64,000 nt of DNA from a virus, in the IMG/VR virus record IMGVR_UViG_3300005096_000005, positions 106,139 through 170,138 of that record; one strand, written 5' to 3'. How positions within the stretch are numbered: position 1 is the first letter of the stretch; every line of letters begins with the position of its first letter. A model generated the notes under the pieces. The model had not been told where the DNA came from. It worked only from the letters and a program-made list of their open reading frames with translations, and searched no databases. Position numbers and translations under genes: made by a program. This document shows positions 28,036-63,653 of this stretch, piece by piece.

Positions 28036-31000
28036 TATGTATCTCCACTAATCGAAACTAGCTTTCCGCTGGCCCGGACTCTGGTTTGCAATAACCCTGC
28101 CTGCGGGTCACCATCTGCCACAATGGTGCGCACCCAAAAAGGAACCGAGCCTTTTGCCGTTGACTCTTCCCATCCTCCGTTTATCGCCTGGCCCCTCATA
28201 CTCAATCCACTCAGTACTGGACAGTTCATCCTTACATTATTGATATACATTGTTGCAGTTACGTAGGGTACAGGGTAAGGGTCGCCTACAACAGTCCTGA
28301 ATGTCATGCTGACCGACCCCCATACAAACGCTTGCTGGAACTGGTGTATGATGTTCCAACCCTCCGTGAACAATGTAACTTCTACGACATCCTGTGGCGT
28401 ATGGTCCGGATTCTCAAGACGCTGTACGCGCAACCTGTACTTCTTTGCTGGATCTATCGCAACTCCTGTGTCATCGTGCTGACTTGCTGCGCCATCCCAA
28501 TACGAGAAGACCAGGTTTCCCGCCGCATTCACGCTGGCCCCTACTATCAGGCTGTCTGCCGTATCAAAAGTGGATAGCGGGCTATCAAAATCCCATGTGT
28601 ACGTTGGAACCATACTGAATATCCACCCCTCTGGATCGGTTACAATTAGGTCCAACTCAAAACACCACACCAAATCTTTTGGCAGCTCGTCCGAATACCA
28701 CCATGCCAGACCGGCATTCGCCTGTGCGTTCGACTTGTGCAATCCGCACATATCGGAATATATGTCACCTTCCGCATCTATCGTTACAGCGCCATCGCTC
28801 TCAATAGACAGCGTCCACGCTCCCCTTACGTCTCCATTGTCGAGATCTGTCGGGCTTGTCTGGTCTTTTGCTGTCTCAAATCTCAGCGGAGTTCCAAGAC
28901 CTGCAAAACCAATCCAATTGAACTCGCGGGTCAAGTCCGGCATGACACTGCTTCGGTCCTGATCTATTGGCGAATACGTGAGACCTGTCTCGTAATCTGT
29001 AACAGGATAGGATACCTCGTCCGAAGCGTCAAACCTGTAGATTCTCAAATTGTCTATTCCACCAGCATCTGCAATAATGGCGGGCGCTGTGTCGTCATCC
29101 AGTGAAGCTCCAACCCTTAGCCTTGTAGTGTCGGAATCGAATACGAGATTAGCAAGATCGGCCGCCGACGTGTTGCCTGCCCCCATCTGAATCAAAGCTC
29201 CGCCAGCCCCGTCATCTCTATAAAACTTCAGATCTGTGCCATCAAAGGCTATCCCGATAAATGCTGTGCTGAGCGTAAAGTCCTGGTCCGTAGATTCTGT
29301 GGGCTCGTAATTGACTGTAGTCGCCAGACTCTCGTCGTGAGCAGTTACTCTCAGGTGACGCTCCGACCCATCGTAGTATAAAGAAACCCGAATCCAATCC
29401 AGACTTACAGAATCCATAATCTCGAACAGCAGGTATTCGGTTGATCCGACATCCATTCCTGTTCTATGTAATTGGAACGTCGTTGTCCATTCTGCCTCAT
29501 TAAAGAATATCCCATCGAATGTAACCCATGAAGCACCATCGAAATTCATCCACTTGTAGAACAGCGAATCTGTACCGCCCCCTACATAATCCAATGCCGT
29601 CAGGTCCACACCACGGTATAGACCATGCGGTCCAATTACAGAACGCACCTTGCCCAGTATATTGTTGGGAACGTCAGCGAACCGATCGTCCACAAAGTCG
29701 GGAGTCCACTGAATAGTCATGTCACCGGTGTTCATCCAATAGTGGGCCGATATCTGAATCAGTTTCTCTGTATTACCGTCGGTGTCTTCTATAGTTATAG
29801 CAACATCTTCCTGGCTACTGAGAGGATGTCCATTGTATACGTAACTTCTATAAGGGTCCGAATCTACCCCTCTGGCTGTTACTACCCCTTCTGCGTTGAG
29901 ATCCACAGAAGTTTGTGGTTTGTCCAGATCACGGTCACTGAAGCCAATGGACCAGTCGGAGATAGACACTAGGAGGTCGTCGATAGTGACCGACCCTCCC
30001 TCGTCGGGAGATATCTCAATCTCTACGTACTGGAAGTCACAGGTCAACTGTGTAAAGGCCGTCTCGAATGAGCCGACATAGAACTTTGGATTCTTGAACA
30101 CCTTGACGTTATCAACAAAACATGTCCCATCGGGTGCGTCGGTTGCCCAAAAGGCCGCATCACCTATTGCAAGCGCCACCGGATCAGTAAAGGCAAAGTT
30201 GCTCGTTCCAAAAGCCTGTATCCATTCCCATTGTGGAGTCACAATATTAACCATTACTCTGGCACGATTATCTTCCAAGATCCCCGAACGCTTATCGTGC
30301 TCGCTCCACGAGAGATCCAGAGTATCCGAAACCCATGAGATACATACGTGGTAGAAATTGTCTCTCGGAAGTATTGGTGTTGCTGGTTCGCCAAAATCCC
30401 AGAAGCCGTTTACACTACCAGATCCGGTTGGCATGCCCGACACAGCCTCACTCACAACCGGCACGTGCCAATCGTCTGACGTCGCTGGAGGGTCAGTTGT
30501 CTCATACTTCTTTGCATATATGTCGTCATAAGTGTAGAACCCACGCGGAGGGTAATAAGCATTCTTCCTGAGATATATATGAGAATAAAGGGTTAGCGAA
30601 GCTCCGGTCAAAACGTGAGACGGGACTATAGGTCCCTGAGTGCCCGGCGACCAATTGTAGTTCATCCACGATAGCAAATTTTGCTCACCATCGTTGATCG
30701 CATTGGTGTGCGTAGCACATGGACCCACCATTGGGTGATACGAATGCCATGGGGCATTAGAAATACCTGAAGACGACCATCCTTTTAAGGCTCCGAACAA
30801 TCCTGGGTTTGTCCATGAATAACTGATACTCGTATTGCCGTAAGCTGACGCGAAAGGAACACCGGGCCTCCATGTAACTCCTTCATAATCCCCTACACAC
30901 GATATGTCGAACGAGACAGCCCCACCGATGTCCTGGAAAAGCGATGGGGGAAGAGAAAACGCACGATATACATTGTTTTGTGCCGCGGTACTATATGGCC

Positions 31001-51286: not shown

Positions 51287-52789
51287 TTAGACCCCTCCGG
51301 TAATAAGTCCACCAACGACAATACCGCGAATGTCCGCCATAACGGGATCGTTCGCGACTCTCTTAATGCTGTCCCGAGCCTGTCTTATTAAACCTTTCCT
51401 TCCCCCGGGAGTTTTCAAATCTTCCAGGTCAATCGTACTCGGCAACAACATCTCCTGCAACTGATCGGCCTTTGCCTCCAACTTCCACTTATCTATAAAG
51501 TGCCGGACTTTACGCCCCAACTTGCCGACATCTCCATCCCAATTATGGAAGATGTGGTCACGAGCCGTCTCAATCACTTTTCGTAATGACTCCTGTTCGC
51601 GCTGTCTATCCAGAAGGATGAGCCCAACCTGAGAAAGGTTGACGTCGTAGGATACTGCATGAAAGAACCCCTTCATTGCTGTATCGTTCTGACTGGTCAT
51701 ACCCTCCACAACTGCGTCGGTAAGAGCCTGAAGCAGCGGGTTGTTTACCTTCGCCCTGTCCAACTTCCGCACCACGTCGTCTCCGTCGATATCGTAGCGG
51801 GACGCCATGTGCTGAATGTTGTGCATCAGGCGCACTCCCTGTTTCGTCGCAAGTTTCGCGGCCTGCCACGCGATCAGTCTGCGCGCCGTTCGGCTCCTTC
51901 CCAGGACCTTCGCTATTGTATCCTGCATCCTCCTACTATTCAAGACAGCCTTATCTATTGCTGTAACAAAAGAAGCGAACGCCGTTGCCCTGGCGCTCGC
52001 TGGTATGTCTGCAAATGAACTGATAAGCTGAAAGATATGTTCTTCAGAACCATAACTGAGTACCGAGTCGACATGCGAAAGCGCGAACGCATTCTGCAGA
52101 TTCTCGATCTCGGCTTGAGCTGTATATCCGATAATGCTCCCATAAGCCCCTTCAACATTCCGTCTGAACTCCCGTTCGTACTGGAGTTCCGTAATACTGT
52201 AGTCCAACCGCTGCACTTCCTGAAGGTCGAAGTCACTCGTGTTCAATAAAGCCTCAACCTTCTTTTGAAGGCCAGCCTGCTGGAGCTCTAAGCTCGGGGC
52301 TTTGCTTGGTTCTTTTATCCGGACCTTTTGTGTGGCTATCAGTTGAAACTCCTCTGAAAGCCTTGCGTATCGCTCCAGTACCGTCTGGTCTCCTGTGCGA
52401 TCGAACTCGTCCTTGGCTTCTTTTACTTGGAATGAGAGGTCGCGCAGTTTTTGCTCGACATTCTCATACGCAGATACCGTCTTCTCTGTGTACTCGTCTT
52501 CGTCTACTGTAACGGGTACAATCCGGTCATCTGCTACCGCGTCGACTATCTCACTCCAGGACTGTGCCGGAGAAGTGCCGTAAAAGGCGAGTCGACGATT
52601 CGTTTCATCTTCAAGGTCCAGCTCTTTAAGTCGATTATACACTCGTTCCTGAACGTTTGCAAGCCTTATTAGAGAAGTATAGACTCCATCTCTAATCTCA
52701 GATAAAGTGTTTTCCTTCTCTCCGAAGTTCCCAAAACGCCGTCCTCTTAACGCGACTGGTTGCTCAGAAAAGTTTATTCGTGTTGTCAT
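51287..52789 (-). CDS. Helical protein between TerL and portal
   Basis: A 500-residue protein from ATG 52789 (MTTRINFSEQPVALR), which overlaps the TGA of TerL; a GTG at 52813 is in frame but would overlap more. Residues 30-270 are long coiled-coil-like helices with many charged residues ('VEQKLRDLSFQVKEAKDEF'). The C-terminal half is helical too, and the protein ends 'IRGIVVGGLITGGV', a Gly-rich hydrophobic tail like those of the small membrane-active proteins upstream. I recognise no family. Position suggests a virion protein of the head or an internal protein ejected with DNA. Confidence 0.5.
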   Translation of the reverse strand: MTTRINFSEQPVALRGRRFGNFGEKENTLSEIRDGVYTSLIRLANVQERVYNRLKELDLEDETNRRLAFYGTSPAQSWSEIVDAVADDRIVPVTVDEDEYTEKTVSAYENVEQKLRDLSFQVKEAKDEFDRTGDQTVLERYARLSEEFQLIATQKVRIKEPSKAPSLELQQAGLQKKVEALLNTSDFDLQEVQRLDYSITELQYEREFRRNVEGAYGSIIGYTAQAEIENLQNAFALSHVDSVLSYGSEEHIFQLISSFADIPASARATAFASFVTAIDKAVLNSRRMQDTIAKVLGRSRTARRLIAWQAAKLATKQGVRLMHNIQHMASRYDIDGDDVVRKLDRAKVNNPLLQALTDAVVEGMTSQNDTAMKGFFHAVSYDVNLSQVGLILLDRQREQESLRKVIETARDHIFHNWDGDVGKLGRKVRHFIDKWKLEAKADQLQEMLLPSTIDLEDLKTPGGRKGLIRQARDSIKRVANDPVMADIRGIVVGGLITGGV

Positions 52790-55700
52790 CTCCCGCGGTA
52801 CCCCCTGCCCCACACCGAGCGATTTGAGGCCCCAGGCATTCTACGATTGGTACCAATACGACCCCTCCTCCCTCTTGGCGCTACAGGCTTTCGTCCTGAA
52901 GGCGGAATGTCGTATATTTGGAGAACCCCACCATTCATACGGGGATCCTCTTTTGGTTTCTTTGCGTCAGTATAGGGGTCTATGTAATACTTACCGTGTA
53001 CTCCGGGTCCTTGTCTTCCGTGACGTACAACTGCCCCCTTTGAACCTCTCGGGAAGATCAGCTCGTTGGAGAAGTTGGATATAAGTCCGAACAGGGCAAA
53101 CAACAAAGCGTCCAGTGCGTGTTCGTTCTTCATGGTGTACCTGGGCTGCCCTGTAGTAGCGCTCCGGGCTACAACCTGGTAATTCTCCATCTGCTCCTTA
53201 AGCTTCATATCTTTTTTGGAAGCGACCAGCGCACACTGCTCGGTCAGGCGCACGCCAAGCTGCACGAGATATGGTTTGATTGGTACCTTTGTGAACTCGC
53301 CCCGCTTGTAGGGGTCTGGTATCTCGACATGCTCTCCATAGAAGATTGGAACAACACGTTTCCCGAGACCTGTTTCGGGATGCTCCTTACCGTACTTATG
53401 TAAGTTCTCCACGACCATCTCTCCGTAGCCGCGGTCTACATATATGTATGAGGTCTTCCACTTCCGGTCCAACTCTATGATCTTATCGACAAGGGCGTGA
53501 AGGGTTAGTTCTCCTTTCCGCCCTTTTGGCATTGTCACTCTTTGGAGAATGAACGCTTTGTTGTACTTATCGTTCCACTCCACGATTACGATCTCAGGAC
53601 CGGTAGCGTACTTGTCCACGTCCACGCCCATAACGCGCTTTCTCGTTTTCGGATTAAAACGTGCCGGATAAGTATAGTTGGAGAAGCTCTTGAGCCCGGC
53701 TGCTTCTATAACTTGCTGATCCCCAAACATAATGTCCAGGTACCACTTCTGGAACACGCCAGCAAGTTCTTCGGGGAACTCGGCGAGCACCTCGGTAATA
53801 ATACCGTACTCATCGAACCCTGCCAGAATCTCCTCTCCAAACGTGACCGGATTGCCGTACACGTCGTAGTCCATAATGTTGTCCCAGTATGGAACTACAG
53901 AGGACGGGTAGTGGTGCACCATCCATCTCTTGCGAGGGTCCGTGTTCCACTTGTACCACATCCCGCGAGCGCCAGACGGGGTCGACGATGCGATAATTCT
54001 GATATGAGGGTTACCGATACGGATACCCATAATAGTCCGTAAGTCGTTGTCGTCGAGATAATCGGCCTCGTCAAGGATAATGAAGTCGGAATCTTTACCA
54101 CGAGAGGCACCACCCCCTGCGCCGGACTTTGTGCCTGCGGTCATTCCTGTGATAGTGGAGCCATTATTGAACCGCACTCTGTACGGCGGGGATTTTGTAA
54201 GCCGCCCAACCACCGACGCCTGAAGCGTTTCACTATTCTCGATCATGAAGTTAATGCCGGGACGATCCCAAAATATCTTCTTGACCTGTTCGTCATACGG
54301 AGTGAGGATAAGCACTTTCGAGTTTGGATGGGTAAAGGCGTGATGTAGCGCCTTAATCATAATGCTCGTAGTGTTATGAACCACAACATCGTTTGCAACA
54401 AAGTTGTATGTACCGTCTACATCAGAGAGGTCGTACGTCTGGTGTCTTCCGAGAGATTCAATGGAAACCACGGGATCCCAAATCACTTCAGAATCCGCAA
54501 GACCCTCCAGATAACTGTCTCCGCCAAGGTTCTTCGCATACCTCTTTAGTTTCTTCCTTGAAGGGGAGTCTCCTAAACGCAACCTCTTGTTATCGTATGT
54601 CGAGCCTCCAACTACAGCCCTTTTGGTTAGGCCCTTCATACGCCTTCGAACGTCAACATACGACATTACCCCGGCGGGGATTGCGTCGATCTTCCTGTTG
54701 CCTGTTATAGCCCTGCTGGCAAGCGCCTTTACTACTTCAAGAACGGCCTCCTCTTTTCCAAAGATACCGATCTTCCTGGCGAACATTTTGATATCCGCCG
54801 CCGCAGAGATAATAACCTGGTACGCAATTCGAATCCCACCATTATACTTAACACGTTTGCGCGACAGACTTGCGATGATACCAAACTTCAGCAGGAGCGA
54901 ATGGACATCGTGCGCCAGTTCTCCCGACACAGAACAGAACCCGATCTCCGCTCGTCCCTTATATTCTTCGCTCACACAAGCCCAACCGTCCGTCGCATAA
55001 AGCCGGTTAAGAAACAACGCCACCTGAGCCTCTGTTCCTCGAAAGATGTCCTTTGGAACCTTTTTGGTGTGAGCATTATGCTCTGCGATATCAGCATCCT
55101 TAAGAAACCGGTTAATTTGATGATTGTTCCTGCCGGAGACAATTGACTTGAACCAATAGTCACACTTCGACTTCGAAACCCGTTTCAACTGCGCCCCAAG
55201 CTCTCTGGCAATGACGCGCATCTCCTCGATATGTCGTTCATTGATAGAAGACCACCGGTGGCTTGTTGTACATGTTGTTCCACCGTCTCCAATCATGTAC
55301 CCCAGGAACTTGAGCTCCTGATCGGAATAGGACGAACCTATACCAAACCGTGTTTGTGACGGTACCGCAATCCTGTCGCCCAGCTGCACATCTTTGACAG
55401 GTATCCATTCTGGACGCTCGGTTCTGAATACAAGGACCGGATGCTCAGCGGTAAGGTCGACCTCACGCCCTGTGCGGGTTGTCAGTCGAAACACTTCCTT
55501 AACGCCATTATCGAGAACGTCGTATCCGTCTTTGGTTGTAAACTTGAAGTTGTTCTGAAGAGACGTAATTCCAGGACGGTCCTGCGACTTCATCTTTCGT
55601 AATTCGGCAACCGTTACATAAGCGCCATCATCAGTACTGACACGAACCCATCCCGGCAAACATTTTCCTGTCTGGCGTCCTAGCCTCCATACCTGATAAC

Positions 55701-56049
55701 GAGTAGTATCCTGGAGGAGCAATTCCTGGTACCAGCGCGGGTGGTAGTCAACGACCTGCTTTGACTCCGGATCGATGACTTTGATCTCTGTCTCCGCCCA
55801 CTTGCACGGATCGGCGAGAAGCATGACTTTCTTGCGCTCTTCGTCGGTCGGATAAGCATCGGCGAGCTCTGGATCGTTATCCCAGTCCGGCTCGAAAAAC
55901 GACCTGTCTCTTTCGTCAAACCAGTCCGGCTTTGGCATGTGCCTGATCTGGTCGGGCACCATCTCCGGGGCAAAGATATCCACATCCGAATGTTGCGGTT
56001 TAGTGAATAGATCTACAACCGGTTCCTGTGGAAGTCTCGGTAGAGACAT
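52786..56049 (-). CDS. Terminase large subunit interrupted by an intein
   Basis: A 1087-residue precursor: 657 residues of TerL plus a 430-residue intein (residues 130-559). After splicing the P-loop reads 'LGRQTGKTTSIM'. The ATPase part then shows Walker B 'DFIILDEADYL' and coupling motif 'IASSTPSG'; the C-terminal nuclease shows acidic residues in 'VMGVDVDKYATG', 'YIYVDRGYGEM' and 'NEHALDALLFALF'. TerL packages DNA into the prohead with ATP and cuts it. The ATG overlaps the previous stop (TAATG). Since the intein splits the Walker A loop, the ATPase can work only after splicing. Confidence 0.93.
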   Translation of the reverse strand: MSLPRLPQEPVVDLFTKPQHSDVDIFAPEMVPDQIRHMPKPDWFDERDRSFFEPDWDNDPELADAYPTDEERKKVMLLADPCKWAETEIKVIDPESKQVVDYHPRWYQELLLQDTTRYQVWRLGRQTGKCLPGWVRVSTDDGAYVTVAELRKMKSQDRPGITSLQNNFKFTTKDGYDVLDNGVKEVFRLTTRTGREVDLTAEHPVLVFRTERPEWIPVKDVQLGDRIAVPSQTRFGIGSSYSDQELKFLGYMIGDGGTTCTTSHRWSSINERHIEEMRVIARELGAQLKRVSKSKCDYWFKSIVSGRNNHQINRFLKDADIAEHNAHTKKVPKDIFRGTEAQVALFLNRLYATDGWACVSEEYKGRAEIGFCSVSGELAHDVHSLLLKFGIIASLSRKRVKYNGGIRIAYQVIISAAADIKMFARKIGIFGKEEAVLEVVKALASRAITGNRKIDAIPAGVMSYVDVRRRMKGLTKRAVVGGSTYDNKRLRLGDSPSRKKLKRYAKNLGGDSYLEGLADSEVIWDPVVSIESLGRHQTYDLSDVDGTYNFVANDVVVHNTTSIMIKALHHAFTHPNSKVLILTPYDEQVKKIFWDRPGINFMIENSETLQASVVGRLTKSPPYRVRFNNGSTITGMTAGTKSGAGGGASRGKDSDFIILDEADYLDDNDLRTIMGIRIGNPHIRIIASSTPSGARGMWYKWNTDPRKRWMVHHYPSSVVPYWDNIMDYDVYGNPVTFGEEILAGFDEYGIITEVLAEFPEELAGVFQKWYLDIMFGDQQVIEAAGLKSFSNYTYPARFNPKTRKRVMGVDVDKYATGPEIVIVEWNDKYNKAFILQRVTMPKGRKGELTLHALVDKIIELDRKWKTSYIYVDRGYGEMVVENLHKYGKEHPETGLGKRVVPIFYGEHVEIPDPYKRGEFTKVPIKPYLVQLGVRLTEQCALVASKKDMKLKEQMENYQVVARSATTGQPRYTMKNEHALDALLFALFGLISNFSNELIFPRGSKGAVVRHGRQGPGVHGKYYIDPYTDAKKPKEDPRMNGGVLQIYDIPPSGRKPVAPRGRRGRIGTNRRMPGASNRSVWGRGYRGR
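54373..55662 (-). mobile_element. Intein with LAGLIDADG-type homing endonuclease, in the TerL P-loop
   Basis: 430 codons from Cys130 to Asn559 of the precursor, between Gly-Lys and Thr-Thr of the Walker A motif. Block A starts CLPGWVRVST; block B is 'TAEHPVLV' (T200, H203); the homing-endonuclease motifs are 'LGYMIGDGG' (about 249-257) and 'LYATDGWA' (350-357), both with the needed Asp; the C-terminal blocks end 'YDLSDVDGTYNFVANDVVVH' then Asn, with Thr as the +1 extein residue. All splicing residues look intact. The endonuclease would copy the intein into intein-free terminase genes. Confidence 0.92.
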
Positions 56050-58652: not shown

Positions 58653-58680
58653 ACTCACATAACATGCCAACGAGGTGATT

Positions 58681-59595
58681 ATGACCAACGAATCGTACAA
58701 ACACCACGAAGTACAAAAAGGAGAGACGCTCTCCCAGATTCTCAAAAAGTACTACGGAGGTTATTCAAAACCTCTTGCTGAAAGAGTACTCGCAGGTCAC
58801 AACATTGTCAACCCCAACGCCATACCTGCCGGCCTCGTACTGAACCTGCAGGGCTCATGGAGTCATCCCAAACCTGAGATGGAAGTTTACGACCATCCCA
58901 ACAAAGCGATTACCACCCTTACAAACAAAAGCGAGCTCAGCGACACACCCGCCGCAGAACCAAAAAAGCTGGAGAAGGACCTTCCCCGGGGCGAATACTG
59001 GGCGCAACTCTATAAGAAGGACCTTATCGTCCTCCACTTCACTGCGGGCTATACGTGGCGGAGCGCGTACAACACGTTCTTGAGGCCCGGGCGCGTCGCC
59101 ACACCATATATCGTGGATGTGACAGGACCTCTTTTTGTGGTCCAACTGTTCGACCCCAAATTCTGGTCGTACCATCTTGGCATCAAGAAACCCTACTCCA
59201 ACAACTGGAACAACGATAAACGAAGTATCGGTATCGAGATCGTAAACATCGGTCCGGTCTGGAAGAAGGGTATACACTACAAGGATTATACAGGAAAGAT
59301 ATGGCCTGAGGGCGACGTAGTCGTGGCCCCAAATCGGGACGCCGACGGTGGTGTACGTTTCCCCGAAGAACAGATCTATGCCGTATGTGACCTGATAAAC
59401 TGGCTATGCCAGGAATTCGATATCCCCCGGCAGGTACCGGCGGATAAGATGTCCATGCAGCTCCCTGAGGTTGGGGAGTTTAAAGGGATCGCCACCCATC
59501 AACACTTTCGCAAAGACAAGTATGATATGGGAAGCGCCTTCCCCTGGGACATCGTAACCGATCGGTGCGGTCTGGAGGAAGTCGACCTAACATAA
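58681..59595 (+). CDS. Endolysin: LysM domain plus N-acetylmuramoyl-L-alanine amidase (Amidase_2)
   Basis: A 304-residue enzyme from ATG 58681 (MTNESYKHHEVQKGE); GTG 58675 is in frame but GAGG sits 5 nt before the ATG. Residues 7-57 are a LysM wall-binding domain ('HEVQKGETLSQILKKYYGG', 'NPNAIPAGLVLNLQ'). Residues 110-295 are Amidase_2 with zinc ligands H119 ('LIVLHFTAGY'), H273 or H275 ('ATHQHF') and D282 ('KYDMGSAFPWD'). It cuts the bond between muramic acid and the peptide stem. There is no signal peptide, so export depends on a holin encoded at 21 kb on the other strand. LysM first, amidase second is a less common order. Confidence 0.92.
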   Translation: MTNESYKHHEVQKGETLSQILKKYYGGYSKPLAERVLAGHNIVNPNAIPAGLVLNLQGSWSHPKPEMEVYDHPNKAITTLTNKSELSDTPAAEPKKLEKDLPRGEYWAQLYKKDLIVLHFTAGYTWRSAYNTFLRPGRVATPYIVDVTGPLFVVQLFDPKFWSYHLGIKKPYSNNWNNDKRSIGIEIVNIGPVWKKGIHYKDYTGKIWPEGDVVVAPNRDADGGVRFPEEQIYAVCDLINWLCQEFDIPRQVPADKMSMQLPEVGEFKGIATHQHFRKDKYDMGSAFPWDIVTDRCGLEEVDLT

Positions 59596-59605
59596 GGAGG
59601 AAGAC

Positions 59606-60673
59606 ATGGCAAATCCAACACTCGACTTTTCATCCCTGCCTAACTGGCCGACCGGCCGCGTCGGAGAACCCTATTCGGTCACAGTGCCGCTCGACCTGGA
59701 TGGTGAGGTGTTCCAATCCATCGAGACCGTATTCCCCACACCGAACTGGATCAACACCCAGCTCGCCGGGAGCGACATACAGCTCTCGGGGGTACCAAAC
59801 CTGATCGGGACATTTACTATCGGTCTCAGGTTGTACACAGACGTACACCCCAACGGTTACGTTCTAAATGTACCAGCCGGAGGACCCGACCTCACTGTCA
59901 TGTCCGCCAACGTCGACGCCATCGACGAGGAGCAACAGTACTTCGGCTACAAGGACATGGTTCTCATGCCCGGCGAAGAACTGTCAGTTTCCAAGAACGG
60001 CGTCCCGGACCCGGACATGACTTTCACCAACGCCGACCCGGTGGAATCTGTCAGGTTCATAGTCAACGCCGCAGGCACCAAGGTCGGAGAGCCACCGAGC
60101 ATCAACACTACACCACCCGCGGCACAGCTCGGATTCGGCATCGACACTTTCAGCTACAATGCTGACGCCGACGGCGCAACACCACTGTCATGGTTCGTAG
60201 TCTCCGGACCTCCGGGGTTCAGCATCAACACCGTGTCCGGTCTATGCAGCTGGGTTCCCACGGGAGAGGGCCTGTTTAACGCCCGCATCCGCGCAGAGAA
60301 CCTGGCAGGCCACGACGAACAGGATATTCCGCTGGACGTTATCATCGTTGCTCCAACCTGGCTTACTGATCCATACGCCGACGCTCTTGTGCTTCCGGGA
60401 ATGACGACCCCGGTCGATCCGGCCCCGCTGGCACCCGGCGAATCCTACCGCTACGATATGGAAGTCTCAGGGTCACCAACCATCACCATGACCATCACTG
60501 ACTACGGTACTGTCGACCCTGGCGACGTGAACCTCGTACCACTATCGCCAACCCGCTGGAGACTCGAAGTTGTGAACAACATGGCGGACGGAAACGTCCA
60601 TACACTGATTCTGCGCGCCGAGAATACCGGAGGTTCCGCAGACCAGAGTATCAATATAGAACTGCAAATGTAA
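59606..60673 (+). CDS. Ig-like (He_PIG-type) protein
   Basis: A 355-residue protein (MANPTLDFSSLPNWP) with AAGGAGGAAGAC before the ATG, a strong signal. Beta-rich with at least three Ig-like units; the clearest is the putative-Ig type at about residues 190-250 ('PLSWFVVSGPPGFSINTVSG', 'CSWVPTGEGLFNARI'). It follows the endolysin gene by 10 nt and is co-transcribed. It could be a virion decoration or a secreted-looking adhesin, but there is no signal peptide. Its link with the endolysin is unexplained. Confidence 0.65.
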   Translation: MANPTLDFSSLPNWPTGRVGEPYSVTVPLDLDGEVFQSIETVFPTPNWINTQLAGSDIQLSGVPNLIGTFTIGLRLYTDVHPNGYVLNVPAGGPDLTVMSANVDAIDEEQQYFGYKDMVLMPGEELSVSKNGVPDPDMTFTNADPVESVRFIVNAAGTKVGEPPSINTTPPAAQLGFGIDTFSYNADADGATPLSWFVVSGPPGFSINTVSGLCSWVPTGEGLFNARIRAENLAGHDEQDIPLDVIIVAPTWLTDPYADALVLPGMTTPVDPAPLAPGESYRYDMEVSGSPTITMTITDYGTVDPGDVNLVPLSPTRWRLEVVNNMADGNVHTLILRAENTGGSADQSINIELQM

Positions 60674-60702
60674 TTGACACACCCCCTGTGTGCCGTTATA
60701 AT
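60674..60702 (+). promoter_or_regulatory. Perfect-consensus sigma70 promoter with dyad in spacer
   Basis: TTGACA at 60674 starts immediately after the TAA of the Ig-like gene, and TATAAT at 60697 follows after 17 nt. The spacer contains the dyad CACAC-CCCCT-GTGTG (60678-60692), a possible operator. Confidence 0.85.
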
Positions 60703-60708
60703 CCGGGT

Positions 60709-60807
60709 GTCTTGTTTCACTGCGTGTCCACCGGACACAGAGTGACATACCAATCAAGGGCAATAAAGACGCCCGCCCACAGGCCGTCCTTATGGCGGCC
60801 TCTTTTT
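60709..60807 (+). ncRNA. Structured small RNA candidate, about 100 nt
   Basis: Promoter, RNA and terminator form one compact unit. Hairpin 1: CACT, 2-nt bulges, GTGTCC, loop ACC, GGACAC, AGTG (60718-60744). Hairpin 2: GGGC, 9-nt loop, GCCC (60758-60774). Hairpin 3 is the terminator. No ORF with a ribosome binding site occurs inside. The RNA could be a phage regulatory RNA or decoy; nothing in the window tells its target. It converges on the terminator of the zinc-ribbon operon. Confidence 0.65.
60781..60807 (+). terminator. Rho-independent terminator
   Basis: AGGCCG, a 9-nt loop, CGGCCT, then TCTTTTT. It ends the small RNA and probably also the endolysin operon. Confidence 0.8.
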
Positions 60808-60814
60808 ATGGCAC

Positions 60815-60847
60815 AAAAAAGCTCCCCCGCCCCTGCGAGCGGAGGAG
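60815..60847 (-). terminator. Rho-independent terminator of the right-hand minus operon
   Basis: On the minus strand CTCCTCCGC pairs with GCGGGGGAG (9 bp, one G-U) over an 8-nt loop, followed by C and six T. It lies 36 nt after the stop of the zinc-ribbon gene. Confidence 0.8.
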
Positions 60848-60882: not shown

Positions 60883-61800
60883 TTATCCTACTTGTGTCAG
60901 GAAGCACATAAGGTTGTATCCACAAGCGTGGCAATGCTTCTGATTAGTGGCGCACTTCGTGCCACACTCAGGACAGAACACCTTATCCCTGGTCGTTACT
61001 ACATTCTTCGCCGCGTGGAGCCTGATACGAATCTGGGCGGCCCTGTTGTCTTCCACTCTCATGCAAGACACCCGGAAACCGGTGCGACTTATGTCCCCCT
61101 GGGTCGTAGCTCCGGTCGGCCGCGTCCTGTTAACGTGCTGGCCGGTCGAGCGTTTCTTACTGAAGGTTCCAACAAGGCCCATCGCATCGTCCGAGAACAC
61201 AGTACCATCCATCTTTTCGCCTTTGAGAGATTCTCCGGCCGTGGTCGCTCCCGAAGGTGCGCATGACTCTTCGCACGCAGCCTCAGCCTCAGCCACAGGC
61301 GCCGCCGAAAAGTCGCCCATTGACCAATCTATCGTCGGAGGTCCGCCAATCTCGCCGGGAGCGCCAAACTTGCCAGACCTCATACTGTCGAGGATAGCGT
61401 CGCGAGTAATCACTTTCGATTCTTCTCTTTCGAAGTGGAAGTTGACAATGATAAGTCCATTGTCTCTGGAGTCGGGGTCCGGTGTAGCGTTCTGGCCTTC
61501 TCTGGAATTGAGAGCTACGAACTTCAGGGCTCTGCCCTTTGTCAGATCTCCGTCCAGCATGAACCGGTCAAGGGTGGTTGTGCCATGGGCTGGAATTACC
61601 AGTCCGCCCTGCAGTGCGTCCATACCGTCGATAGTGATGTACGCGGCGGCCCTTCTGTCGTGTTTGTTTTTGAGGAAGATTGTGTACTCTGTGTCGTGGG
61701 GGAGATAGACGACGCGCTCGCCGTTCTCCACGAACTCTCTGACTGTCTTACCGTCTTTTGTCTGAATAGATGCTACGAATCCTTCTGCATGTGCCATCAT
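60883..61800 (-). CDS. Beta-domain virion-type protein with C-terminal zinc ribbon
   Basis: A 305-residue protein (MMAHAEGFVASIQTK) with AAGGAG 8 nt before the first ATG. Residues 1-120 form a beta domain with 'RVVYLPHDTEYTIFLKNKHD', 'YITIDGMDALQGGLVIPAHG' and 'TTLDRFMLDGD', a pattern found in several phage surface or decoration proteins. A flexible Ala/Glu/Ser-rich middle with many Gly follows. The C-terminus is a zinc ribbon: 'VFCPECGTKCATNQKHCHAC' with paired C-x2-C. It is last in its operon and is followed by a terminator. It may attach to the virion or be an intracellular effector; the domain mix is uncommon. Confidence 0.6.
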   Translation of the reverse strand: MMAHAEGFVASIQTKDGKTVREFVENGERVVYLPHDTEYTIFLKNKHDRRAAAYITIDGMDALQGGLVIPAHGTTTLDRFMLDGDLTKGRALKFVALNSREGQNATPDPDSRDNGLIIVNFHFEREESKVITRDAILDSMRSGKFGAPGEIGGPPTIDWSMGDFSAAPVAEAEAACEESCAPSGATTAGESLKGEKMDGTVFSDDAMGLVGTFSKKRSTGQHVNRTRPTGATTQGDISRTGFRVSCMRVEDNRAAQIRIRLHAAKNVVTTRDKVFCPECGTKCATNQKHCHACGYNLMCFLTQVG

Positions 61801-63266: not shown

Positions 63267-63653
63267 CTACCGGAGTGCTGTCAAGACTGTTTGCATAATC
63301 TTTCCAACGTCATACGGTTTTTTGAAGAAAGCGTGTCCCAATTGCTCCGCGGTATCGGCCCACTCGTCCCTGCCGGACACGAAGATTATGATCGGATCCA
63401 AACCCAGGGCGTGGATCTTGGTAGCGCACAGGAAGCCGTTCATCACCGGCATGTCCACATCCAGAATCACAACGTCAGGCTGGCTGGCATAGACCACCTC
63501 AGCGCCCTCACGCCCATCACAGGCCGTACCCACAACCCTGAATTCCTCCGTCAGGTTCAGCGTCTCAAGAAGAGACGTAATGAGCTCTGGCGTGTCATCG
63601 ACGATGACAACCCTTATCTCATCCTCTTTCTCCCGATCTCCTGAAAAGTTCAT
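63267..63653 (-). CDS. CheY-like response regulator receiver, single domain
   Basis: A 128-residue protein (MNFSGDREKEDEIRV) with AAGGGG 6 nt before the ATG. All receiver residues are present: acidic pocket D19-D20 ('VIVDD'), phosphoacceptor D65 ('VILDVDMPVMNG'), S93 in 'VSGRDEW', and K112 in 'FFKKPYD'. There is no output domain. In bacteria such proteins take phosphate from histidine kinases and act by protein contact. A phage-borne copy could short-circuit host signalling or tune phage regulation. It is the first gene of the right-hand operon, downstream of the twin repeats. Confidence 0.85.
   Translation of the reverse strand: MNFSGDREKEDEIRVVIVDDTPELITSLLETLNLTEEFRVVGTACDGREGAEVVYASQPDVVILDVDMPVMNGFLCATKIHALGLDPIIIFVSGRDEWADTAEQLGHAFFKKPYDVGKIMQTVLTALR

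What the first reader, a model, noticed from the sequence alone, without database searches (positions are those of the whole stretch)
60674..60807. Self-contained small RNA gene: perfect promoter, three hairpins, terminator
TTGACA-17-TATAAT is a perfect consensus, rare in phage structural regions, and starts right after a stop codon. It reads only about 100 nt of non-coding sequence that folds into two hairpins and a terminator hairpin. A dyad inside the promoter spacer suggests control by a repressor. A constitutive strong phage RNA could sponge a host regulator, act on host or phage mRNA, or mimic a host RNA.
Basis: partly seen in the sequence, partly recalled or inferred. Interest (0 to 1): 0.72.

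Follow-up and report, generated by a model that had tools for sequence, protein, structure and literature searches.

The report
Phage small RNA gene candidate
Just past the cell-wall-lysis genes of a large uncultured phage lies a short unit with a perfect bacterial promoter, about 100 bases of strongly folded non-coding RNA and a terminator, very probably a real small RNA gene of a familiar kind whose target is unknown.

Summary
TTGACA-17-TATAAT at 60674-60702 abuts the TAA of a + strand gene; an intrinsic terminator ends at about 60807, and no gene with a ribosome site lies between. A 170-kb dinucleotide shuffle gives 0.017 perfect promoters; the record has two, the other leading into the tRNA cluster. 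The RNA folds far better than shuffles (z -3.7 from 60709, -4.8 from 60705). The unit is the 3' UTR of the amidase gene pair and shares that operon's only terminator, so it is best read as a 3'-UTR small RNA with its own host-sigma promoter. No target stands out: the best phage lead (11 bp over the start codon of the gene at record 29719) is marginal. The repressor idea has no support. Real small RNA: likely. Function: inferred only.

The parts
58675..59595 (+). Amidase_2 endolysin, first gene of the + strand pair upstream
   Evidence: Pfam PF01510 E 4.4e-10; PHROG endolysin 2.7e-6; probable true start ATG 58681 after GAGGTG
59606..60673 (+). 355-aa protein that looks Ig-like by eye, no family match; its TAA stop (60671-60673) abuts the -35 box
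60674..60679 (+). -35 hexamer TTGACA
60678..60692 (+). spacer dyad CACAC-CCCCT-GTGTG, of unknown meaning
   Evidence: only CACAC-N5-GTGTG in the 170-kb record
60697..60702 (+). -10 hexamer TATAAT
60705..60709 (+). probable transcription start; 60709 G by the usual spacing, 60705-60707 if the closing helix is used
   Evidence: inference from spacing; fold changes with start site
60704..60713 (+). 5' strand of closing helix P1 (CGGGUGUCUU)
   Evidence: 10 bp with 60766-60775, one G-U; 9 or more bp expected in 0.8% of shuffles
60717..60745 (+). hairpin H1: UCACU-GC-GUGUCC-ACC-GGACAC-AG-AGUGA
60746..60765 (+). A-rich stretch CAUACCAAUCAAGGGCAAUA, mostly unpaired when P1 forms; candidate pairing region
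   Evidence: fold; role inferred
60758..60774 (+). weak hairpin H2 (GGGC/GCCC), alternative to P1
   Evidence: pair probability 0.45-0.61 with starts 60707/60709, near 0 with 60705
60766..60775 (+). 3' strand of closing helix P1 (AAGACGCCCG)
60781..60807 (+). intrinsic terminator, shared by the small RNA and the amidase/Ig-like mRNA
   Evidence: 8-bp stem plus TTTTT; first + strand terminator found after the TAA at 60673
60822..60847 (-). terminator of the convergent gene 60883-61800
60883..61800 (-). convergent gene, 305 aa, with a zinc-ribbon-like end (by eye)
   Evidence: 27% identity to a Xanthomonas phage XacN1 protein

Best explanation
The region encodes a non-coding RNA of about 99-103 nt made by the host's housekeeping-sigma RNA polymerase from a very strong promoter. 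It lies in the 3' UTR of the lysis gene pair and ends at that operon's terminator, so the same sequence is also the tail of the amidase/Ig-like mRNA. The 5' end, closed by a helix around hairpin H1, and the 3' terminator hairpin would make the RNA stable. The A-rich stretch at 60746-60765, extended by melting the foot of H1, is the most likely place to base-pair with a host or phage mRNA. Promoter, terminator, fold and lack of a gene are shown from sequence; transcription, stability and antisense action in trans are inferred.
For: Perfect promoter against 0.017 expected. Terminator about 100 nt downstream. Fold z -3.7 to -4.8 and 3rd of 2049 GC-matched pieces. No ORF with a ribosome site starts inside the transcript. 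The single G-U pair of P1 holds only in + strand RNA (on the other strand it is A-C), favouring an RNA over a DNA dyad. The record's only other perfect promoter leads into the tRNA cluster. Several other well-matched promoters in the record stand before genes with ribosome sites, so this phage seems to use the host sigma.
Against: No relative found, so no covariation. No target above background. No expression data. Host unknown, so host targets could not be searched.
Confidence: 0.55

Rival explanations
1. Only a 3' UTR: the folded segment protects and terminates the amidase/Ig-like mRNA, and the short promoter transcript has little function of its own.
For: It holds the first + strand terminator after the operon, and the closing helix lies wholly inside the mRNA tail.
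Against: A perfect 12/12 promoter is not needed for this and is very unlikely by chance.
Confidence: 0.17
2. Transcriptional device: the strong + promoter and terminator insulate the convergent genes, or fire antisense into 60883-61800 on read-through; the RNA itself is a by-product.
For: Convergent layout with back-to-back terminators.
Against: The transcript ends before the convergent gene; insulation does not need a folded 75-nt body.
Confidence: 0.1
3. Protein-binding decoy or mimic RNA, for example titrating a host RNA-binding protein or acting like an RNA anti-CRISPR.
For: Strong promoter with a compact fold; viral solitary CRISPR repeats also often sit right after a promoter (PMC10651486). 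A 5' stretch TTCACTG-CGTGT matches the type I-F repeat recalled from memory (shuffle p 0.0015 for that one repeat, chosen after the fact).
Against: The second arm of the type I-F hairpin is missing, the RNA folds differently, and no Rfam CRISPR repeat family matched even at E 10.
Confidence: 0.1
4. A leaderless mini-gene (GTG 60707-60745, 12 codons) or other tiny ORF.
For: The GTG falls within the possible start sites.
Against: No ribosome site; peptide only 12 aa; no relatives.
Confidence: 0.03

Closest known systems
MicX-type 3'-UTR small RNAs transcribed from their own promoter (reviewed in PMC9438474)
   Same: Sits at the 3' end of an mRNA, has its own promoter, uses the mRNA's intrinsic terminator
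   Different: The promoter lies just after the stop codon, not inside the ORF; carried by a phage; no chaperone, processing or target known
Phage-encoded small RNAs such as lambda OOP and PreS, and VpdS of VP882 (PMC12197685)
   Same: Short non-coding RNA made from a phage genome
   Different: No overlap with a gene on the other strand (unlike OOP); no sequence relation found; phage large and uncultured
PAK_P4as15, antisense to a phage endolysin gene (PMC12197685)
   Same: Linked to the endolysin region of a phage
   Different: Here the RNA is on the same strand as, and downstream of, the endolysin, so not antisense to it
RNA anti-CRISPRs, RacrIF1 (PMC10651486)
   Same: Strong promoter followed by a short folded RNA
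   Different: No CRISPR-repeat hairpin and no Rfam repeat match

Membership tests
Autonomous bacterial or phage small RNA gene | own promoter | tested here: met
   12/12 sigma-70-type promoter, expected 0.017 per record; activity not tested
Autonomous bacterial or phage small RNA gene | Rho-independent terminator | tested here: met
   60781-60807
Autonomous bacterial or phage small RNA gene | no translated ORF | tested here: met
   no ORF with ribosome site inside the transcript; a 12-codon leaderless GTG frame cannot be excluded
Autonomous bacterial or phage small RNA gene | stable secondary structure | tested here: met
   z -3.7 to -4.8
Autonomous bacterial or phage small RNA gene | conservation or covariation | tested here: inconclusive
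   no relatives found in any collection
Autonomous bacterial or phage small RNA gene | detected transcript | not testable with these tools
   needs RNA-seq of infected cells
3'-UTR small RNA with own promoter (MicX type) | lies between stop codon and shared terminator of an upstream gene | tested here: met
   TAA 60671-60673; the terminator at 60781 is the first to follow on the + strand
3'-UTR small RNA with own promoter (MicX type) | regulates mRNAs by base pairing in trans | tested here: inconclusive
   sequence-only lead at record 29719 (3.7% of shuffles) is not above background with accessibility; host mRNAs not searchable
RNA anti-CRISPR (Racr) | CRISPR repeat sequence and hairpin | tested here: not met
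   no Rfam CRISPR repeat match at E up to 10; second arm of the type I-F hairpin absent
Any Rfam 15 RNA family | match above gathering score | tested here: not met
   none
cis-antisense RNA such as lambda OOP | overlaps a gene on the other strand | tested here: not met
   RNA ends at about 60807; convergent gene ends at 60883 and its terminator at 60822

The most novel reading that the evidence does not exclude
A strongly transcribed phage RNA with a closed 5' domain, unlike any described family, that binds a host protein or silences host or phage mRNAs during infection while also serving as the tail of the lysis mRNA, linking early host-driven transcription to lysis timing.
Probability: 0.12. 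Interest if true: 0.65.

Novelty: new member of a known kind. Interest (0 to 1): 0.36.

Why it matters
Few small RNAs of large phages have known functions. This one can be recognised from DNA alone with good statistics, and its place in the lysis operon's 3' UTR gives a clear experiment. It would be a new example rather than a new principle.

Tried and rejected
Rfam at gathering and permissive thresholds: nothing. Exact and structural pattern scans for the RNA in IMG/VR and GTDB, and blastn in phage and plasmid records: nothing. Neighbour proteins and capsid as hooks for relatives in IMG/VR: none; terminase alignment: 44 distant loci, at most 43% identical, none carrying the unit; none in GTDB. 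A second copy within the record: none. A similar-looking promoter plus terminator at record 51723 lies antisense to the end of a coding gene, folds no better than shuffles (z -1.2) and is taken as chance. Phage target scans: duplex energy no better than shuffles; accessibility-aware energies no better than random coding windows. RNA anti-CRISPR: rejected on structure. Repressor operator: dyad unique in the record.

Full report
What was checked. The window is bases 106139-170138 of a 170,138-base virus record of IMG/VR. The claimed promoter, RNA and terminator are present at the stated coordinates. The -35 box begins at the base after the TAA of the + strand gene 59606-60673.

Is it more than chance. 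Sixty dinucleotide-preserving shuffles of the whole record gave 0.017 perfect promoters (16-18 nt spacing) per record on both strands; the record has two. The other, at record 14578, stands before a small gene with a ribosome site and the tRNA cluster, so both perfect promoters lead into stable-RNA or candidate stable-RNA regions. Other 11/12 promoters, such as record 22529 and 29637, stand before genes with classical ribosome sites, so the phage seems to rely on the host's housekeeping sigma. A scan for promoter plus nearby terminator in the record found this unit, one weaker case inside coding sequence in the window, and one at record 51723 that overlaps a coding gene on the other strand. 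In 719 kb of distant relatives a promoter of at least 11/12 followed closely by a terminator occurred once, inside a coding sequence.

Anatomy. Folded from 60709 the RNA shows the strong hairpin H1 (60717-60745), a weak hairpin H2 and the terminator (z -3.72), and still z -3.21 without the terminator. If transcription begins a few bases earlier, a 10-bp helix P1 (60704-60713 with 60766-60775, one G-U pair) closes the 5' domain and replaces H2 (z -4.81). A helix of nine or more pairs at the 5' end arises in 0.8% of shuffles. The energy ranks 3rd among 2049 GC-matched pieces of the window. The usual spacing from the -10 box gives 60709 as the start (in staphylococcal Herelleviridae the start is typically a G 6 bp downstream of the -10 box, PMC10383478). 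That start leaves P1 with only 5 bp, so which fold prevails is open. P1 is complete in the longer lysis-operon mRNA whichever start the small RNA uses.

Surroundings. Upstream on the same strand are an Amidase_2 endolysin (58675-59595) and a 355-aa protein with no family match. Downstream is a convergent gene (60883-61800) with its own terminator at 60847-60822. The first + strand terminator found after the lysis pair is the one that ends the small RNA. The unit is therefore the 3' UTR of that operon, with an internal promoter: the layout of own-promoter 3'-UTR small RNAs such as MicX (PMC9438474).

Relatives. Neighbour and capsid proteins gave no close relatives in IMG/VR. A terminase alignment with Bacillus phage KLEB27-3 and Moorella phage MTATph1 gave 44 distant loci, none of which carries recognisable versions of the flanking lysis genes or the RNA. 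GTDB gave none. DNA patterns and blastn gave none.

Targets. Duplex energies against 144 phage translation starts were no better than for shuffled RNAs. One exact 11-nt complement (60741-60751) covers the start codon of the gene at record 29719, upstream of ribonucleotide reductase; such a run appears in 3.7% of shuffles. With accessibility counted it does not exceed random coding windows. It is a lead for a reporter test, not a result.

Mechanism. Shown from sequence: promoter, terminator, fold, absence of a gene, shared 3' UTR. Inferred: transcription by host polymerase from early in infection, stability from the closed 5' end and terminator hairpin, and base pairing through the A-rich stretch 60746-60765 with a host or phage mRNA. 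My estimate that a discrete RNA is made is about 0.85; that it acts in trans by pairing, about 0.55. The spacer dyad as an operator has no support beyond its existence: it is the only such site in the record.

Verdict. A likely real, ordinary-kind phage small RNA, new as a sequence, with unknown targets.

Noticed in passing
L002:784-859 and L002:14980 to L003:2983: About 20 tRNA genes, including one with a CTA (amber) anticodon; yet 17 of 136 predicted genes, the portal among them, still end in TAG, so no wholesale recoding.
   Followed up: partly
L002:15662-15813: Rfam tRNA match 152 nt long, with an apparent insertion of roughly 75 nt around the anticodon loop; a possible small intron or broken tRNA.
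   Followed up: no
window 52786-56049: Large terminase with a probable intein at residues ~130-559: Moorella phage MTATph1 lacks it, KLEB27-3 seems to carry one, and the region matches 'DNA helicase' genes of Listeria and Enterococcus phages.
   Followed up: partly
window 63267-63653: A 128-aa stand-alone response-regulator receiver domain protein (PF00072, E 3.3e-18), unusual in a phage.
   Followed up: no
L004:11723-11860 (record 51723-51860): Promoter-like site with terminator 89 nt downstream, antisense to the 3' end of a 385-aa gene that looks actin-like by eye; fold no better than shuffles; probably chance.
   Followed up: yes
L003:9709-9726 (record 29709-29726): 11-nt exact complement to the small RNA over the start codon of a 226-aa Cys-motif protein upstream of ribonucleotide reductase.
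   Followed up: yes
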